Shown piece by piece: positions 1-8,119 of a DNA stretch of 36,672 nt. The notes under the pieces are model-generated. The model was not told the origin of the DNA. It searched no databases and saw only the letters and a program-made list of their open reading frames with translations. Position 1 is the stretch's first letter; the number at the start of each line of letters is the position of its first letter. This DNA is from a virus, in the IMG/VR virus record IMGVR_UViG_3300025674_000148, positions 1 to 36,672 of that record; one strand, written 5' to 3'. A program made the translations under genes and the position numbers.

Positions 1-7
1 AACTGGT

Positions 8-391
8 GGGGGCGATAGCATAATGGCATTTCTGCATTCTGACGATGGCCCCCTGTGATTGGTTGGGAAGGGTGTAGCAAGGTTGGTATTTCTGCGATAT
101 TTACTTGACCCTTCCCTTTGGTGCGCCAACAGGTTGGCATTTCTGCGGACCTTGTGCGGCACCATGTAAAAAGTTGGGGGCGTATCCTCGATAGCATTTC
201 TGCGATGGCACCTTGACCCCCTGTGATTGGTTGGGGAGAGTGAACAGGCATTGACATTTCTGTATCTTTCCTTTGGCTCTCCCCAATGGTGCGAACCTTT
301 AGTAGCATTTCTGCGTATCCTATATGGCACCATGTGATTAATTTGGGAGTGACCGGCTCTTGGCATTTCTGCGTGTGATGCGTGACCCCCA
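8..391 (-). ncRNA. Array of seven GAAA-capped hairpins, candidate structured RNA
   Basis: Seven stem-loops follow each other. Outer stems (plus coordinates) are 8-13/48-53, 65-73/108-116, 119-124/159-164, 176-181/216-221, 231-241/276-286, 286-292/327-333 and 344-350/385-391. Every unit has exactly 34 nt between its outer stem halves: 12 nt, a 10-nt core, 12 nt. The core reads GCATTTCTGC on the plus strand, so on the minus strand it is GCA-GAAA-UGC, a 3-bp stem with a GNRA tetraloop. Unit 5 carries ACA/TGT in place of GCA/TGC, a compensatory change. Outer stems differ in sequence yet stay paired (GGGGGC, GGGAAGGGT, TGGTGC, GGGGAGAG types). Stem types alternate A-B-C-A-B-C-A with a ~168-bp period. 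The first base inside each stem half is G on both sides in all seven units. The array starts 6 nt after the stop at 398 and may continue beyond the left edge. Strand is inferred from the GNRA loop and neighbouring gene direction. G-U versus A-C pairs do not settle it. Function unknown. Confidence 0.7.
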
Positions 392-397
392 TAAACA

Positions 398-937
398 TCA
401 TGACACCATGACGTCTGTGTGAATTGCTTCTACGTCTTCGATCCTCCAGACATCCCGAACAATTTTATCGTCAGGCATTTTCTCTAAGATCGCAGACAGA
501 AACTTATGGTTGCGGCGATGCGTGTTCGCCTTCAAACCTTCTTTGTGCACGACGTGCTCCAGATCACTCTTCATCGCATCGCCAAGGCAGATGCCCAAGT
601 CAGGTAGCGCGAAGTAATCAAAGATGTTCTTCGCATAGAGCGCCGCCGTGTTTTTGAGCGACACGCTTGGAACGGAATGCTCGCCCTTTTGCAAGAGTAC
701 CTGCTTGGAAATCTTCTCAGCTTGCTTTCTGAAGCTGGCACGATTTCCCCGCGACCTTGCGCTTACATCCTCAGACGCAATGCGCTGCAAGTAACGTGCG
801 GTCGCCGCATCGCGTAATTCCTTGTCGCTGCGTAACATCTGAAGATATTTTTCCGCAGCTTCTTTCTGAGTTTTAGAGCCATCCCAAGCCTTCTCAATGG
901 CCTCCAGAACAATCGGGTTTCTCATTTGATAGGTCAT
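398..937 (-). CDS. Hypothetical protein, last gene before the hairpin array
   Basis: A 179-residue soluble, mostly helical, charged protein that I do not recognise. The ATG at 937 is chosen over the GTG at 946 because it overlaps the stop of the preceding membrane-peptide gene as ATGA, so translation is probably coupled. It is Lys/Arg/Glu-rich in the first 90 residues (EKISKQVLLQKGE), has a middle part with NIFDYFALPDLGICLG, and ends in HTDVMVS. No catalytic motif is visible. It is the third gene of a three-gene unit that begins at a promoter-like element near 1312-1340, and its stop lies 6 nt from the first hairpin of the array. The protein may therefore be linked to the RNA, but that is inference from position only. 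Confidence 0.7.
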   Translation of the reverse strand: MTYQMRNPIVLEAIEKAWDGSKTQKEAAEKYLQMLRSDKELRDAATARYLQRIASEDVSARSRGNRASFRKQAEKISKQVLLQKGEHSVPSVSLKNTAALYAKNIFDYFALPDLGICLGDAMKSDLEHVVHKEGLKANTHRRNHKFLSAILEKMPDDKIVRDVWRIEDVEAIHTDVMVS

Positions 938-1029
938 AGCCACCACCCCGCGCTGATACCTGTTACGAAAATCATTGCCATAAGTATGACGATGGTAAAG
1001 ATAATCCAGTCTTGCTTGTCGATATTCAT
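934..1029 (-). CDS. 31-residue single-span membrane peptide
   Basis: A very short gene encoding a 31-residue peptide that begins MNIDKQDW and then has one hydrophobic stretch (about residues 9-31, IIFTIVILMAMIFVTG and on) ending in GWWL. Its reality is supported by a GGAGG ribosome site 7 nt before the ATG and by ATGA overlaps at both ends: with the stop of the upstream gene (1026) and with the start of the downstream gene (937). The charged start and hydrophobic remainder predict an inner-membrane peptide with a short N-terminal cytoplasmic or periplasmic tail. The main lysis genes are on the other strand 34 kb away, so this is not obviously a holin. A role in membrane signalling or superinfection exclusion is possible but unsupported. 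Confidence 0.7.
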   Translation of the reverse strand: MNIDKQDWIIFTIVILMAMIFVTGISAGWWL

Positions 1030-3278: not shown

Positions 3279-4649
3279 TTATTCCTTTGGCTCTTTTAAA
3301 TACTCTAATTCTTCATCGCTAAGATCTTGGTTCTTTTTAAACATTGGGTTTTTAGATTGTGCCTCTAAAAATAAGTCTCTAACGTCAAGAAGAGCAATGC
3401 GTAAGTCTTCTGGAGTTCCTTTTAGCGCCGCGTCTAAACGTGATCTTGCCGCAGTGGCCTGCTTGCCTTCAATATCGGTAATTGGCCCGCCACCTTTTAA
3501 TTGCTGATATGCTTCCAAAAAGTTCAAGCCTTTGACTTGGTCAACATACCCCATTAGAGTTGCGTACTCTGGCGCCATTCCATATTGGTTCATAAATTCA
3601 TTAAAAGTTCCACGATATTCTGTGATTTTACTTAGGTTTGGAGAGTTCAATAAACTATTTAAGGCGTTAATTGCGCTTTCCTGAGAAACCGATGCCGTTT
3701 GTTGTTGGGTAAGTCTTATGATGTCATTCTCAATTCTATCCATTTCCAACTTTAACGCCGGTGCCAGAGATGGGTTATAAGCAGCAAGGGCTGCAATTTT
3801 CTTCTGCCTATCTCGTAAAGTTTCAATTGGATCTGCGCCTTCGGTGATCGCGCCTATGCCGCTCATCGCATCGCCGCCAAACATTTGCTGCATCATCTGT
3901 TGCCGCGCCTGCGCCGCCTGCGCCTTACGCGCCTGATCGGCGCGCGTGGTGAAGTCTGACAGTAAATTCTGTACGCTTTTGCCCTCAAGACCCTGCAACG
4001 CCATCCCAGCGTCCTTGATAGCTGCGAATGAAAGCATTCTGCGCTGCGTCTTGGAAAGGTTTGCATATGGGTCATTAGGATCTGGCGCCGCCGCTTGAGA
4101 TGCAGCTTTTGCCGCTTCCTCTTCACGTATTCTCCGCAAGAGCGCCGGCGTTACTGGCGTTCTCTCTCTCATGTACTCAGGCACAATGTCTATGGGTGCG
4201 TTGACAGGTTCGCTTGAAGAAATGCCGGTTTGAGAAACTATAGTCTTTTGATTGGGGTTCATGGTATTATTTCCCATTATTTTTTCAATATAGGCTTGAG
4301 TTTCGGGATAATTAGGTATTCCACCTTTATCCCTTACCGTTTGAGGCCCAGCATTATAAGCGGCCAAAGCCAAAGGATAGCTGCCAAACTCATCAAGCTG
4401 CATTTTCAGATATTTTGCAGATCCTTCGATATTTTGCCTTGGATCAAATCTGTCTGTGATGCCAACGTCTTGTGCAGCCGCCGCGCCAAGCTGGCCATAA
4501 CCAACGTAATCCTTTCCGCGAACCACGCTCTTTGCATTTGGGTCGAAGCTACTTTCGGCGAAAAGCATTTTAGTGAATATGTCAGGATCGACCCCATATT
4601 CAGCCGCCATTTGCCTTGCATACACTCGTGGATCAAAGCTCTCAGCCAT
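3279..4649 (-). CDS. Virion protein with lytic transglycosylase domain
   Basis: A 456-residue protein whose first ~130 residues are an SLT-type lytic transglycosylase. Catalytic Glu32 is in FAESSFDP, followed by YVGYGQLG (48-55) and AAYNAGP (96-102), the usual three motifs in order. The enzyme cleaves peptidoglycan glycan strands. The other ~320 residues are helical and Gln-rich, which suggests a virion-borne ejection protein that opens a path through the cell wall and not an endolysin. The gene starts at TAATG, overlapping the stop of the preceding virion gene, and is followed by the large ejection-protein candidate. Domain call is firm; virion location is inferred from the neighbours. Confidence 0.88.
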   Translation of the reverse strand: MAESFDPRVYARQMAAEYGVDPDIFTKMLFAESSFDPNAKSVVRGKDYVGYGQLGAAAAQDVGITDRFDPRQNIEGSAKYLKMQLDEFGSYPLALAAYNAGPQTVRDKGGIPNYPETQAYIEKIMGNNTMNPNQKTIVSQTGISSSEPVNAPIDIVPEYMRERTPVTPALLRRIREEEAAKAASQAAAPDPNDPYANLSKTQRRMLSFAAIKDAGMALQGLEGKSVQNLLSDFTTRADQARKAQAAQARQQMMQQMFGGDAMSGIGAITEGADPIETLRDRQKKIAALAAYNPSLAPALKLEMDRIENDIIRLTQQQTASVSQESAINALNSLLNSPNLSKITEYRGTFNEFMNQYGMAPEYATLMGYVDQVKGLNFLEAYQQLKGGGPITDIEGKQATAARSRLDAALKGTPEDLRIALLDVRDLFLEAQSKNPMFKKNQDLSDEELEYLKEPKE

Positions 4650-5958: not shown

Positions 5959-6608
5959 CCGTGAAGCCTTACGATTGAAATGGTTGCGGCAGGCGCAGCG
6001 GGAGCAAACGCGGTAGCCGCAGCGGCTTGCAAAGAACCGTCTGTGCTATCAACCGCCCACATCGTTTCTAAGTAATCGCCTGCGTTCAGTTGAAATATTG
6101 CGGAACGTGATGTAATAAAAACCGCACCATTATTATGTAACGAATTTTTCATAGTTGCCTTCGAAACATCTACACCATTAACGCGGGGCCAGAACCAAAA
6201 TGTGACGGTCGAGGCAGAAGATGACACGATTTGTGAAGAAAATGATACAAAGTATTCGCCAGCCTCGTCAACAACAAGTCGTGACGCAGGGGTTCCGTTT
6301 GTTATTCCATCAGAAACGTCTGGAGAAAAAGTTAACGCATATGCCGTATTGGCCGAGGCGGCAGTTTGGTTTGTACTTACAGTTCCATCATAATGCCCGT
6401 CTTCTAGGACGATCTGTCGAAACTCATTATTTTTTGACACAACGGGATACCCGTTCACATCATCCCACAAGATCACGCCGTTCTCCGACGGGTTATCGTC
6501 CGCCGTTTTAAAAGACAGCTTGGCCAAGTTTCTTTGCAGGTACAAAGAAATCTGTCTGCCCCATTGGCGTAAGTCAGGACCAATTGGAGGTAGGGCGGGT
6601 ATAGGCAT
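5955..6608 (-). CDS. Tail-associated protein with TNF/C1q-like jelly-roll domain
   Basis: A 217-residue protein. The N-terminal helix (LRQWGRQISLYLQRNLAKLS) likely trimerises or attaches to the virion, followed by ILWDDVNGYPVV. Residues about 95-215 are beta-rich in the order seen in TNF/C1q-like jelly rolls: YALTFSPDVSDGI, GEYFVSFSSQIVSSSASTVT, FWFWPRVNGVDVS, FQLNAGDYLETMWAVDS. Such domains form trimeric receptor-binding or spike tips. It overlaps neighbouring genes by ATGA on one side and a single base on the other, so it is cotranslated with the nozzle protein. Fold assignment is by pattern. Confidence 0.6.
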   Translation of the reverse strand: MPIPALPPIGPDLRQWGRQISLYLQRNLAKLSFKTADDNPSENGVILWDDVNGYPVVSKNNEFRQIVLEDGHYDGTVSTNQTAASANTAYALTFSPDVSDGITNGTPASRLVVDEAGEYFVSFSSQIVSSSASTVTFWFWPRVNGVDVSKATMKNSLHNNGAVFITSRSAIFQLNAGDYLETMWAVDSTDGSLQAAAATAFAPAAPAATISIVRLHG

Positions 6609-8119
6609 TATCGTTTACCTGCGGGAAACGCATCGACACGCATGTTGCCTACGCGCCAGTCTTTGCCCGCGGTGCCATCTACACGCATGCGGAATTGACG
6701 GCCAGCAAAACGCACGCCGGTTGGGTTAACTGGTGTATACGGGCCATGCGTTGTTTCGGTGTCGTTTGGATAAAATCTCGTCTTGAATTTTAAGCTGACT
6801 TCACCCTGAGTTTTTTCGTCCGGTATAAGCTGCATCACGTTCATTGTCTGGTCGCCGTTGCCCAGTGATATTGGGCCAGTCTCAGCAAAAACGTCTGCGC
6901 CATCATAGCTCAGGCTGCTTTCATGCTCATATACAGTTTTATTCGTTGCTATTAGAAGCGGGTGTTTAAAGACGCCGCGAGGGACGCCGGCTGTTCTAGA
7001 TAAGTTTCCAGTCATCCAGAAATTTTCGTTATAATTGTACGCCACATAACGGTCTACTTCTTGGCTGCTTGAAGATGGGTAAAACCACCAAATCTCTCCA
7101 AACTCTACATTTGACCATGCCCATATTTGGCTTTGCTGGTCACGGTTAAAGTCATCGAAGACGTAGTCGTGCACGGCGCACGGGAGTTGCTGCACGGTGT
7201 TACCTTGAAAGCCAAAGAACCCCCTTTGACCCATCCAGAAGGCGCCCATGTCAACATCGACCGCGGCTTTACGGGATATGGCGCCGCACGCGGTGCCCAC
7301 CCTCTCAAACCCAAAGATAAACGGACTGCCAACAAAGCGCGCGACGTGGGCGTCTATGTCTGTAAGAATTAACGTCTGGCCGCGCGTCCGCAAGCCCTGC
7401 ATTATCATTCCGCTTGTCTGAAGCTCCTGACTGCCCGCTTGGTTCGTAGTAGCCGCGGTCCATGTCGTATTGTCCTCTTGGTCGCACCAGTACACTTTGC
7501 GCGGGTTTGCGTAGCTTTCCGCCGGAAACCTGCCTCCAAGAGCAAACAGAAAGCGTTCTTCCGTCACAACTAGACCAAGACAATCTATCGGCGCATTGCT
7601 GATTGCCGCCGCGTCCGCCGCAGATCCAAGTTGCCACTCAAGAAGCCGTCCATCTCCATTGCCGGACACCTTGGCGCTGCAAGCAACGAGATACTCGCCA
7701 AAGTTGTCTAATGACCACACTGTCGCTTCTGAGTAGTTTCCGTAATTGGTACGCTCTCTGCCATAATCTTCTGCGCCATAATCGCCGTATCCGTAGCCGG
7801 TAATTAAGGAAGCCTTTTCCAAACCTGCGTTTAAGTCGGAAGGCGTGATATCATAAAGAGTGTTAGAGCCCACCATCGCCTTGAGCTCGTTATATGATCC
7901 TCCAGCAAGATATACAGACCCGTCTAAACTCTCCCACGCATGCATTCCGCGAATAATATTTGTGCTAAATGACGTTTTGCGCTCGCTCCATCCCTTTACG
8001 GGGCGCAAGCTGCCATCACGCCAACGTACCAAGCTGCCATCGCGCCAGCGGTTTGACTGTTCAAGGTCTGTGCCGTTACGGTAGAACCCCGCGGGGATGT
8101 CTAAGGCCAAAAGTGTCAT
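6608..8119 (-). CDS. Tail nozzle/DNA-stabilisation protein, P22 gp10-like beta-propeller
   Basis: A 503-residue protein starting MTLLALDIPAGFYRNGTDLE, with RWRDGSLVRWRDGSLRPVKGW near residues 23-44. That repeated WRDGSL segment is characteristic of the propeller start in the packaged-DNA stabilisation (P22 gp10-like) family. Further blade-like Gly/Trp repeats follow (GYGYGDYGAEDYGRE, WSLDNFGEYLVACS, FFGFQGNTVQQLP). The C-terminal ~100 residues are a separate beta domain (GVRFAGRQFRMRVDGTAGKD). The protein would close the portal/adaptor tube and carry the tail. Length fits the family. It is embedded among tail genes with ATGA overlap at its start. Confidence 0.72.
   Translation of the reverse strand: MTLLALDIPAGFYRNGTDLEQSNRWRDGSLVRWRDGSLRPVKGWSERKTSFSTNIIRGMHAWESLDGSVYLAGGSYNELKAMVGSNTLYDITPSDLNAGLEKASLITGYGYGDYGAEDYGRERTNYGNYSEATVWSLDNFGEYLVACSAKVSGNGDGRLLEWQLGSAADAAAISNAPIDCLGLVVTEERFLFALGGRFPAESYANPRKVYWCDQEDNTTWTAATTNQAGSQELQTSGMIMQGLRTRGQTLILTDIDAHVARFVGSPFIFGFERVGTACGAISRKAAVDVDMGAFWMGQRGFFGFQGNTVQQLPCAVHDYVFDDFNRDQQSQIWAWSNVEFGEIWWFYPSSSSQEVDRYVAYNYNENFWMTGNLSRTAGVPRGVFKHPLLIATNKTVYEHESSLSYDGADVFAETGPISLGNGDQTMNVMQLIPDEKTQGEVSLKFKTRFYPNDTETTHGPYTPVNPTGVRFAGRQFRMRVDGTAGKDWRVGNMRVDAFPAGKR

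What the first reader, a model, noticed from the sequence alone, without database searches (positions are those of the whole stretch)
8..391. Seven-unit array of GAAA-tetraloop hairpins with constant internal geometry
Seven consecutive outer stems of different sequence each enclose exactly 34 nt, split 12 + 10 + 12, with the 10-nt core GCA-GAAA-UGC on the minus strand. Stems covary (GGGGGC/GCCCCC, GGGAAGGGT/ACCCTTCCC, TGGTGC/GCACCA, TTGGGGAGAG/CTCTCCCCAA), and the inner stem of unit 5 changes both partners (ACA/UGU). Exact length conservation with free arm sequences indicates selection on RNA (or single-stranded DNA) shape. I know no described phage RNA with this plan; a decoy or sponge for a host defence or regulator protein, a packaging RNA, or a 3' processing array are possible roles.
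Basis: seen in the sequence. Interest (0 to 1): 0.88.

Follow-up and report, generated by a model that had tools for sequence, protein, structure and literature searches.

The report
Phage guide-RNA array (TIGR type)
The seven hairpins are a phage-borne array of paired 9-letter RNA guides of the recently described TIGR-Tas kind, thought to steer a DNA-binding protein to matching DNA; this version carries an undescribed partner gene and an unreported pairing rule between its two guides.

Summary
In detail: seven hairpins with fixed 12-10-12 geometry lie at window 8-391, read on the minus strand. The suggested roles (sponge, decoy, packaging RNA) and "no described plan" are not. Each 12-nt arm is box C (CA), a 9-nt hypervariable spacer and a box D pyrimidine, around a constant hairpin: the grammar of TIGR stem-loop arrays, the dual-guide RNAs of TIGR-Tas (Faure 2025). 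Forty other viral contigs carry the same array. Where they extend far enough, a 235-aa nuclease-less Tas protein (TasA) follows; its profile matches solved TasR (9MTY, 3.6e-11) and NCBIfam TIGR_Tas (8e-23, below cut-off). Our contig ends 7 nt past the array, so tasA is cut off. Two things go beyond the TIGR-Tas main text. A ~180-aa unannotated protein precedes the array in 49 of 49 testable Tas loci. The last bases of spacers A and B are complementary in 49% of 261 distinct units (26% by chance; 7/7 in the window; 13/23 in a distant clade), suggesting one shared base pair in a 17-bp target. No natural target was found. The biological role (RNA-guided, non-cutting interference with rival or host DNA) is inferred.

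The parts
398..946 (-). Accessory protein gene, 182 aa from GTG 946 (or 179 aa from the ATG at 937); first gene of the accessory - array - tasA module
   Evidence: Homologues directly upstream of the array in the family; accessory ORF in 49 of 49 Tas loci with >1.6 kb upstream; no Pfam, PHROG, NCBIfam, PADLOC or PDB match
344..391 (-). Stem-loop unit 1 (RNA order): spacer A CGCATCACA, spacer B AGAGCCGGT; predicted target CGCATCACACCGGCTCT
287..333 (-). Unit 2: A TATAGGATA, B CTAAAGGTT; predicted target TATAGGATAACCTTTAG
231..286 (-). Unit 3: A AAGGAAAGA, B ATGCCTGTT, inner stem ACA/TGT; predicted target AAGGAAAGAACAGGCAT; closing outer pair is C.A
176..221 (-). Unit 4: A AGGTGCCAT, B TCGAGGATA; predicted target AGGTGCCATATCCTCGA
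119..164 (-). Unit 5: A CACAAGGTC, B ACCTGTTGG; predicted target CACAAGGTCCAACAGGT (unit also in L009)
65..116 (-). Unit 6: A AGTAAATAT, B ACCTTGCTA; predicted target AGTAAATATAGCAAGGT (spacers also in L005, L074)
8..53 (-). Unit 7: A TCGTCAGAA, B TTATGCTAT; predicted target TCGTCAGAATAGCATAA (unit also in L005, L009, L055, L074)
1..7 (-). Contig end inside the linker after unit 7; in relatives more units and then tasA follow, so tasA lies beyond the window

Best explanation
This is a TIGR (Tandem Interspaced Guide RNA) array of the stem-loop type, part of a nuclease-less TIGR-TasA system of a tailed phage. SHOWN by sequence here: a module on one strand in the order accessory gene - array - tasA; units built as [variable stem] CA N9 Y [constant hairpin] CA N9 Y [stem]; a downstream protein homologous to TasR/TasH; spacers that turn over between close relatives. 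FROM PUBLISHED WORK on relatives: the precursor is cut at linkers into single stem-loop tigRNAs, a Tas dimer binds box C/D motifs, spacer A pairs with one DNA strand and spacer B with the other. INFERRED: in this family the two 9-nt spacers read one contiguous site of about 17 bp with a shared central base pair, and TasA, lacking a nuclease, binds and bends that DNA and so blocks its transcription, replication or maintenance; likely targets are competing mobile elements or host genes.
For: Unit grammar equals that published for TIGR stem-loop arrays, down to 9-nt spacers and box C/D pairs that covary. The protein after the array hits TasR 9MTY at 3.6e-11, NCBIfam NF052498 TIGR_Tas_endo at 8e-23 and IS110-type profiles only after the catalytic domain. 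On the same NCBIfam model published Salicola TasH scores 118.9 bits and phage Tas homologues 193-232. Spacers are hypervariable and replaced between phages whose accessory proteins are 97-100% identical. A9-B9 complementarity: 49% vs 26% in 261 units, 46% in 78 clusters, 13/23 in a distant clade, p 0.0012.
Against: tasA itself is not in the window (contig end). The NCBIfam score is below the equivalog cut-off. No natural target found in 1 Mb of family genomes, viral contigs or genomes. No transcript data. The AlphaFold model of TasA was too poor for a fold match. The A9-B9 rule fails in half the units, in the few actinophage stem-loop units read and in small dual-repeat sets. Non-cutting interference is an inference.
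Confidence: 0.9

Rival explanations
1. Protein-binding sponge, decoy or packaging RNA: the hairpin shape is the functional part and the 9-nt arms are free because they do not matter.
For: Constant shape, seven copies, phage-borne.
Against: The free stretches are exactly 9 nt and sharply bounded by box motifs on both sides, show covariation with each other at one position pair only, and the array is followed by an RNA-guided-protein homologue.
Confidence: 0.04
2. A9-B9 complementarity is an RNA-internal base pair of the guide (structure), not a shared base pair of the DNA target.
For: Both spacers end next to a box D, and the tigRNA folds as a pseudosymmetric figure eight in TasR, so the two ends could meet.
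Against: G.U combinations are not enriched at A9/B9 (GT 15, TG 8 of 261), whereas G.U is common in the true stems. Only Watson-Crick pairs are enriched, as expected for two strands of one DNA pair.
Confidence: 0.25
3. Orphan IS110-type bridge RNA or a degenerate transposon remnant.
For: TasA and IS110 share the RNA-binding domain; PHROG labels the TasA family 'transposase'.
Against: No DEDD transposase domain in the 235-aa protein, tandem single-loop units rather than one two-loop RNA.
Confidence: 0.02
4. The TIGR system regulates the phage's own genes or replication rather than attacking rivals.
For: TasA has no nuclease domain; arrays are constant in position in the phage genome.
Against: No dual-spacer match above chance within family genomes, 1.0 Mb with arrays masked; spacers differ between near-identical phages.
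Confidence: 0.15

Closest known systems
TIGR-TasA stem-loop arrays (Faure et al. 2025, PMC12045711, section 9 and Fig. 7; gut contig of Peromyscus leucopus)
   Different: Here all loops keep one constant hairpin (RCAGNAATGY), spacers are exactly 9 nt, the array lies between an accessory gene and tasA, and A9-B9 are complementary above chance; the accessory gene and that rule are not in the paper's main text (its supplement could not be read)
Dual-repeat TIGR arrays (TasR, TasH of Salicola phage CGphi29; Microcystis phage Mvi-JY20 here)
   Same: Two 9-nt (8-9) spacers per unit between box D/box C motifs with a compact loop; homologous Tas protein
   Different: Dual-repeat arrays have constant edge repeats and 36-nt period; here edges are variable stems with 51-60-nt period; TasR/TasH carry nucleases
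IS110 transposase and bridge RNA
   Same: Homologous RNA-binding domain; internal-loop guides read both DNA strands
   Different: No DEDD domain, no transposon, many units instead of one RNA with two loops
TasParB-TasA operons (Faure 2025, section 44)
   Same: A second gene encoded with tasA and the array
   Different: Those have dual-repeat arrays; our accessory protein shows no ParB match in Pfam; HHpred-level similarity was not testable

Membership tests
TIGR-Tas | Tas protein with a Nop-type RNA-binding domain beside the array | tested here: met
   In relatives, 235-aa protein directly after the array: 9MTY (TasR) 3.6e-11; NF052498 8e-23, 81.5 bits, under the 100-bit cut-off. In the window itself tasA lies beyond the contig end.
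TIGR-Tas | Array of units with two 8-12-nt hypervariable spacers | tested here: met
   Two 9-nt blocks at 0.01-0.16 bits per position; 261 distinct units
[quoted passage not shown]
   CA before and Y after both spacers; the adjoining R-Y closing pair occurs as G-C, A-U and G-U
TIGR-Tas (stem-loop type) | Variable palindromic stems in place of edge repeats | tested here: met
   Outer stems of several types (GGGGGC, TGGTGC, GGGAAGGG, TTGGGC, GAGGC) at fixed distance
TIGR-Tas | Transcribed and processed into single tigRNAs | not testable with these tools
   No RNA data for these phages
TIGR-Tas | Spacers A and B pair with opposite strands of a target | tested here: inconclusive
   A9-B9 complementarity fits it but no natural target was found
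IS110 / bridge RNA | DEDD transposase domain | tested here: not met
   The 235-aa protein aligns to the IS110 profiles only from about position 116 on
CRISPR-Cas | Cas genes and direct repeats of 25 nt or more | tested here: not met
   No such repeat in the array region; the flanking proteins give no PADLOC match
Known Rfam RNA family | Match at the gathering score | tested here: not met
   0 matches in the window

The most novel reading that the evidence does not exclude
In these phage TIGR-TasA arrays the two spacers overlap by one base pair on a contiguous 17-bp target (A9 and B9 read the two strands of the same central pair), and the array-upstream ~180-aa protein is an obligate third component of the system. 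Both would be new features of TIGR-Tas.
Probability: 0.5. Interest if true: 0.75.

Novelty: new variant of a known kind. Interest (0 to 1): 0.62.

Why it matters
TIGR-Tas was described in 2025; natural targets, spacer origin and biological role are open questions. This family adds 261 distinct natural guide units in phages, a partner gene present in every testable Tas locus, and a statistical sign from natural spacers of how spacers A and B are registered on one target. That gives an exact 17-bp formula for searching hosts and rivals. Relatives in an isolated Rhizobium phage and in phages of the laboratory strain M. smegmatis mc2 155 make experiments feasible.

Tried and rejected
(1) An apparent target geometry (spacer B - 2 nt - revcomp spacer A) was homologous copies of chance matches; after de-duplication it equals background. 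(2) Family contigs, 1.0 Mb: no geometry stands out beyond chance. (3) 17-mer scans: 2, 0 and 1 hits in viral contigs and 8 scattered hits in genomes, about chance level. (4) AlphaFold of the accessory protein (pLDDT 67) and of TasA (pLDDT 59) gave no usable fold match. (5) The accessory protein as the Tas itself: dropped once the Nop-type protein was found downstream. (6) A coding reading of the array: open frames run through it (tas 'extensions' to 377 aa), but unit spacings of 51-60 nt break frame and spacers are hypervariable. (7) A9-B9 in dual-repeat arrays (Microcystis phage, Acidianus tailed spindle virus): no signal, few units. (8) tasA in GTDB genomes: none found.

Full report
Observation. 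The window is a whole IMG/VR record of 36,672 bp from a tailed phage (portal, large terminase, scaffold, primase-helicase). Positions 8-391 hold seven hairpins on the minus strand, just 3' of the ORF at 398-946. In each, a 10-nt core (RCAGAAATRY) sits 12 nt from an outer stem on both sides. No Rfam family or tRNA matches. The closing pair of the unit at 231-286 is C.A.

Relatives. A pattern scan for two spaced cores in viral contigs gave 79 stretches; 40 contigs other than the window carry at least two units of the same geometry. Of 186 distinct exact cores, 168 have a stem of 5 bp or more at exactly (12,12). In 291 distinct 46-mers the five inner outer-stem pairs are 97-100% paired, with three to six pair types each, against 44-62% for slid partners (that percentage is partly circular because units were picked by having a stem).

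Reading the unit. Information content resolves each 12-nt arm into CA, nine nearly random positions (0.01-0.16 bits) and a pyrimidine; the box positions carry 1.2-1.8 bits. This is the box C / 9-nt spacer / box D frame of TIGR arrays. [quoted passage not shown]). In TasR arrays both repeats start with UG and end with CCA, with base pairs between them. The helix-closing pairs here (R of YR with the first Y of YCA) show the same arrangement.

The effector. In relatives with enough sequence a 235-aa protein follows the array on the same strand. Its alignment (A2) hits one PDB sequence, 9MTY, at 3.6e-11, which is the TasR complex of the TIGR-Tas paper. It hits NCBIfam NF052498 TIGR_Tas_endo at 8e-23 with 81.5 bits, under the 100-bit cut-off. 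On the same model the published Salicola TasH scores 118.9 bits and other phage Tas homologues 193-232. PHROG and IS110 matches cover only the part after the catalytic domain, so the protein fits TasA. The window ends 7 nt past unit 7, so its tasA is cut off. L005 and L074, which share several units with the window, carry the start of tasA.

The accessory gene. The ORF at 398-946 has homologues immediately upstream of the array throughout the family. In 49 of 49 Tas loci with more than 1.6 kb upstream, including four divergent ones (L245, L249, L250, L251), an accessory ORF ends 284-878 nt before tasA. Apart from accessory and tasA no gene cluster within about 5-6 kb occurs in more than 19 of 48 loci, so the three parts look like a transferable module. 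The protein matches no family or solved structure. Homology between the main clade and the Rhizobium-phage clade is weak (hhalign E 2e-4, probability 44%), and that to actinophage ORFs in the same position is only suggestive (best E 0.0014, ranked above decoys). Identity of accessory ORFs across distant clades therefore rests largely on position and size.

Spacer register. Among 261 distinct units the last base of spacer A is Watson-Crick complementary to the last base of spacer B in 49%, against 26% with spacers re-paired at random (maximum 36% in 1000 shuffles); the other 80 position pairs lie at 18-34%. With one unit drawn per cluster from 78 similarity clusters the value averages 46% (z 5.7); one fixed draw gives p = 1e-4 by 10,000 shuffles. 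In a separate set of 23 units from the divergent Rhizobium-type clade it is 13/23 (p = 0.0012), again the highest of 81 cells. All seven window units obey it. G.T and T.G are not enriched. The simplest reading is that A pairs with one strand and B with the other, overlapping by one base pair: a 17-bp site, A followed by the reverse complement of B without its first base. It is not universal: the few actinophage stem-loop units and small dual-repeat sets do not show it.

Targets. An early apparent geometry was an artefact of homologous copies and is withdrawn. Neither 1 Mb of family genomes nor 17-mer scans of viral contigs and bacterial genomes gave matches clearly above chance.

Turnover. The window, L005, L009 and L055 have accessory proteins 97-100% identical, yet share only some units while others are replaced. 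Stem types recur in a cycle of three (GGGGGC, TGGTGC, GGGAAGGG; about 169 nt). This suggests growth by three-unit blocks and fast spacer replacement, as in an arms race; that is inference.

Isolated phages. Rhizobium phage RHph_X2_25 carries an accessory ORF, stem-loop units and TasA; the deposited TasA start codon lies inside the array. Mycobacterium phage Scowl, Gordonia phage Morrissey and Rhodococcus phage Peregrin have the same order with stem-loop units in the gap. Tas homologues occur in 76 Mycobacterium phage records. These offer laboratory models.

Verdict. The feature is real and is a TIGR stem-loop guide array of a TasA system: a known kind, but a variant with a fixed hairpin loop, a constant upstream partner gene and a spacer pairing rule that the main text of the TIGR-Tas paper does not mention. 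I could not read its supplement, so these features may partly appear there.

Noticed in passing
L130:3749-4804 (MW960032.1 24663-25718): The annotated start of the TasA homologue in Rhizobium phage RHph_X2_25 lies inside its stem-loop array; units at about 3816-3930 fall within the deposited CDS.
   Followed up: partly
L131:3470-3850: Microcystis phage Mvi-JY20 carries a canonical dual-repeat TIGR array (ATGCGAGCC / ACGAAACCC, 36-nt period, 9-nt spacers) right after a Tas homologue annotated as hypothetical.
   Followed up: partly
L257:1643-3154, L258:1509-3184, L256:1979-3690: Actinobacteriophages (Scowl, Morrissey, Peregrin; Tas homologues in 76 Mycobacterium phage records) keep the order small protein - stem-loop units - Tas, annotated as hypothetical, transposase or DNA-binding protein.
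   Followed up: partly
window 8-391 and arrays of relatives: Stem types recur in a cycle of three with a 169-nt super-period, suggesting that arrays grow or shrink by blocks of three units.
   Followed up: no
L250:1474-1727 and 2336-2800: Stem-loop units lie on both sides of the accessory gene in this divergent phage.
   Followed up: no
L255:4017-4931: In Acidianus tailed spindle virus the repeat_region directly after the Tas homologue is a dual-repeat TIGR-like array with some units duplicated; a second repeat_region at 6488-6777, annotated 'possible viral CRISPR locus', was not examined.
   Followed up: no
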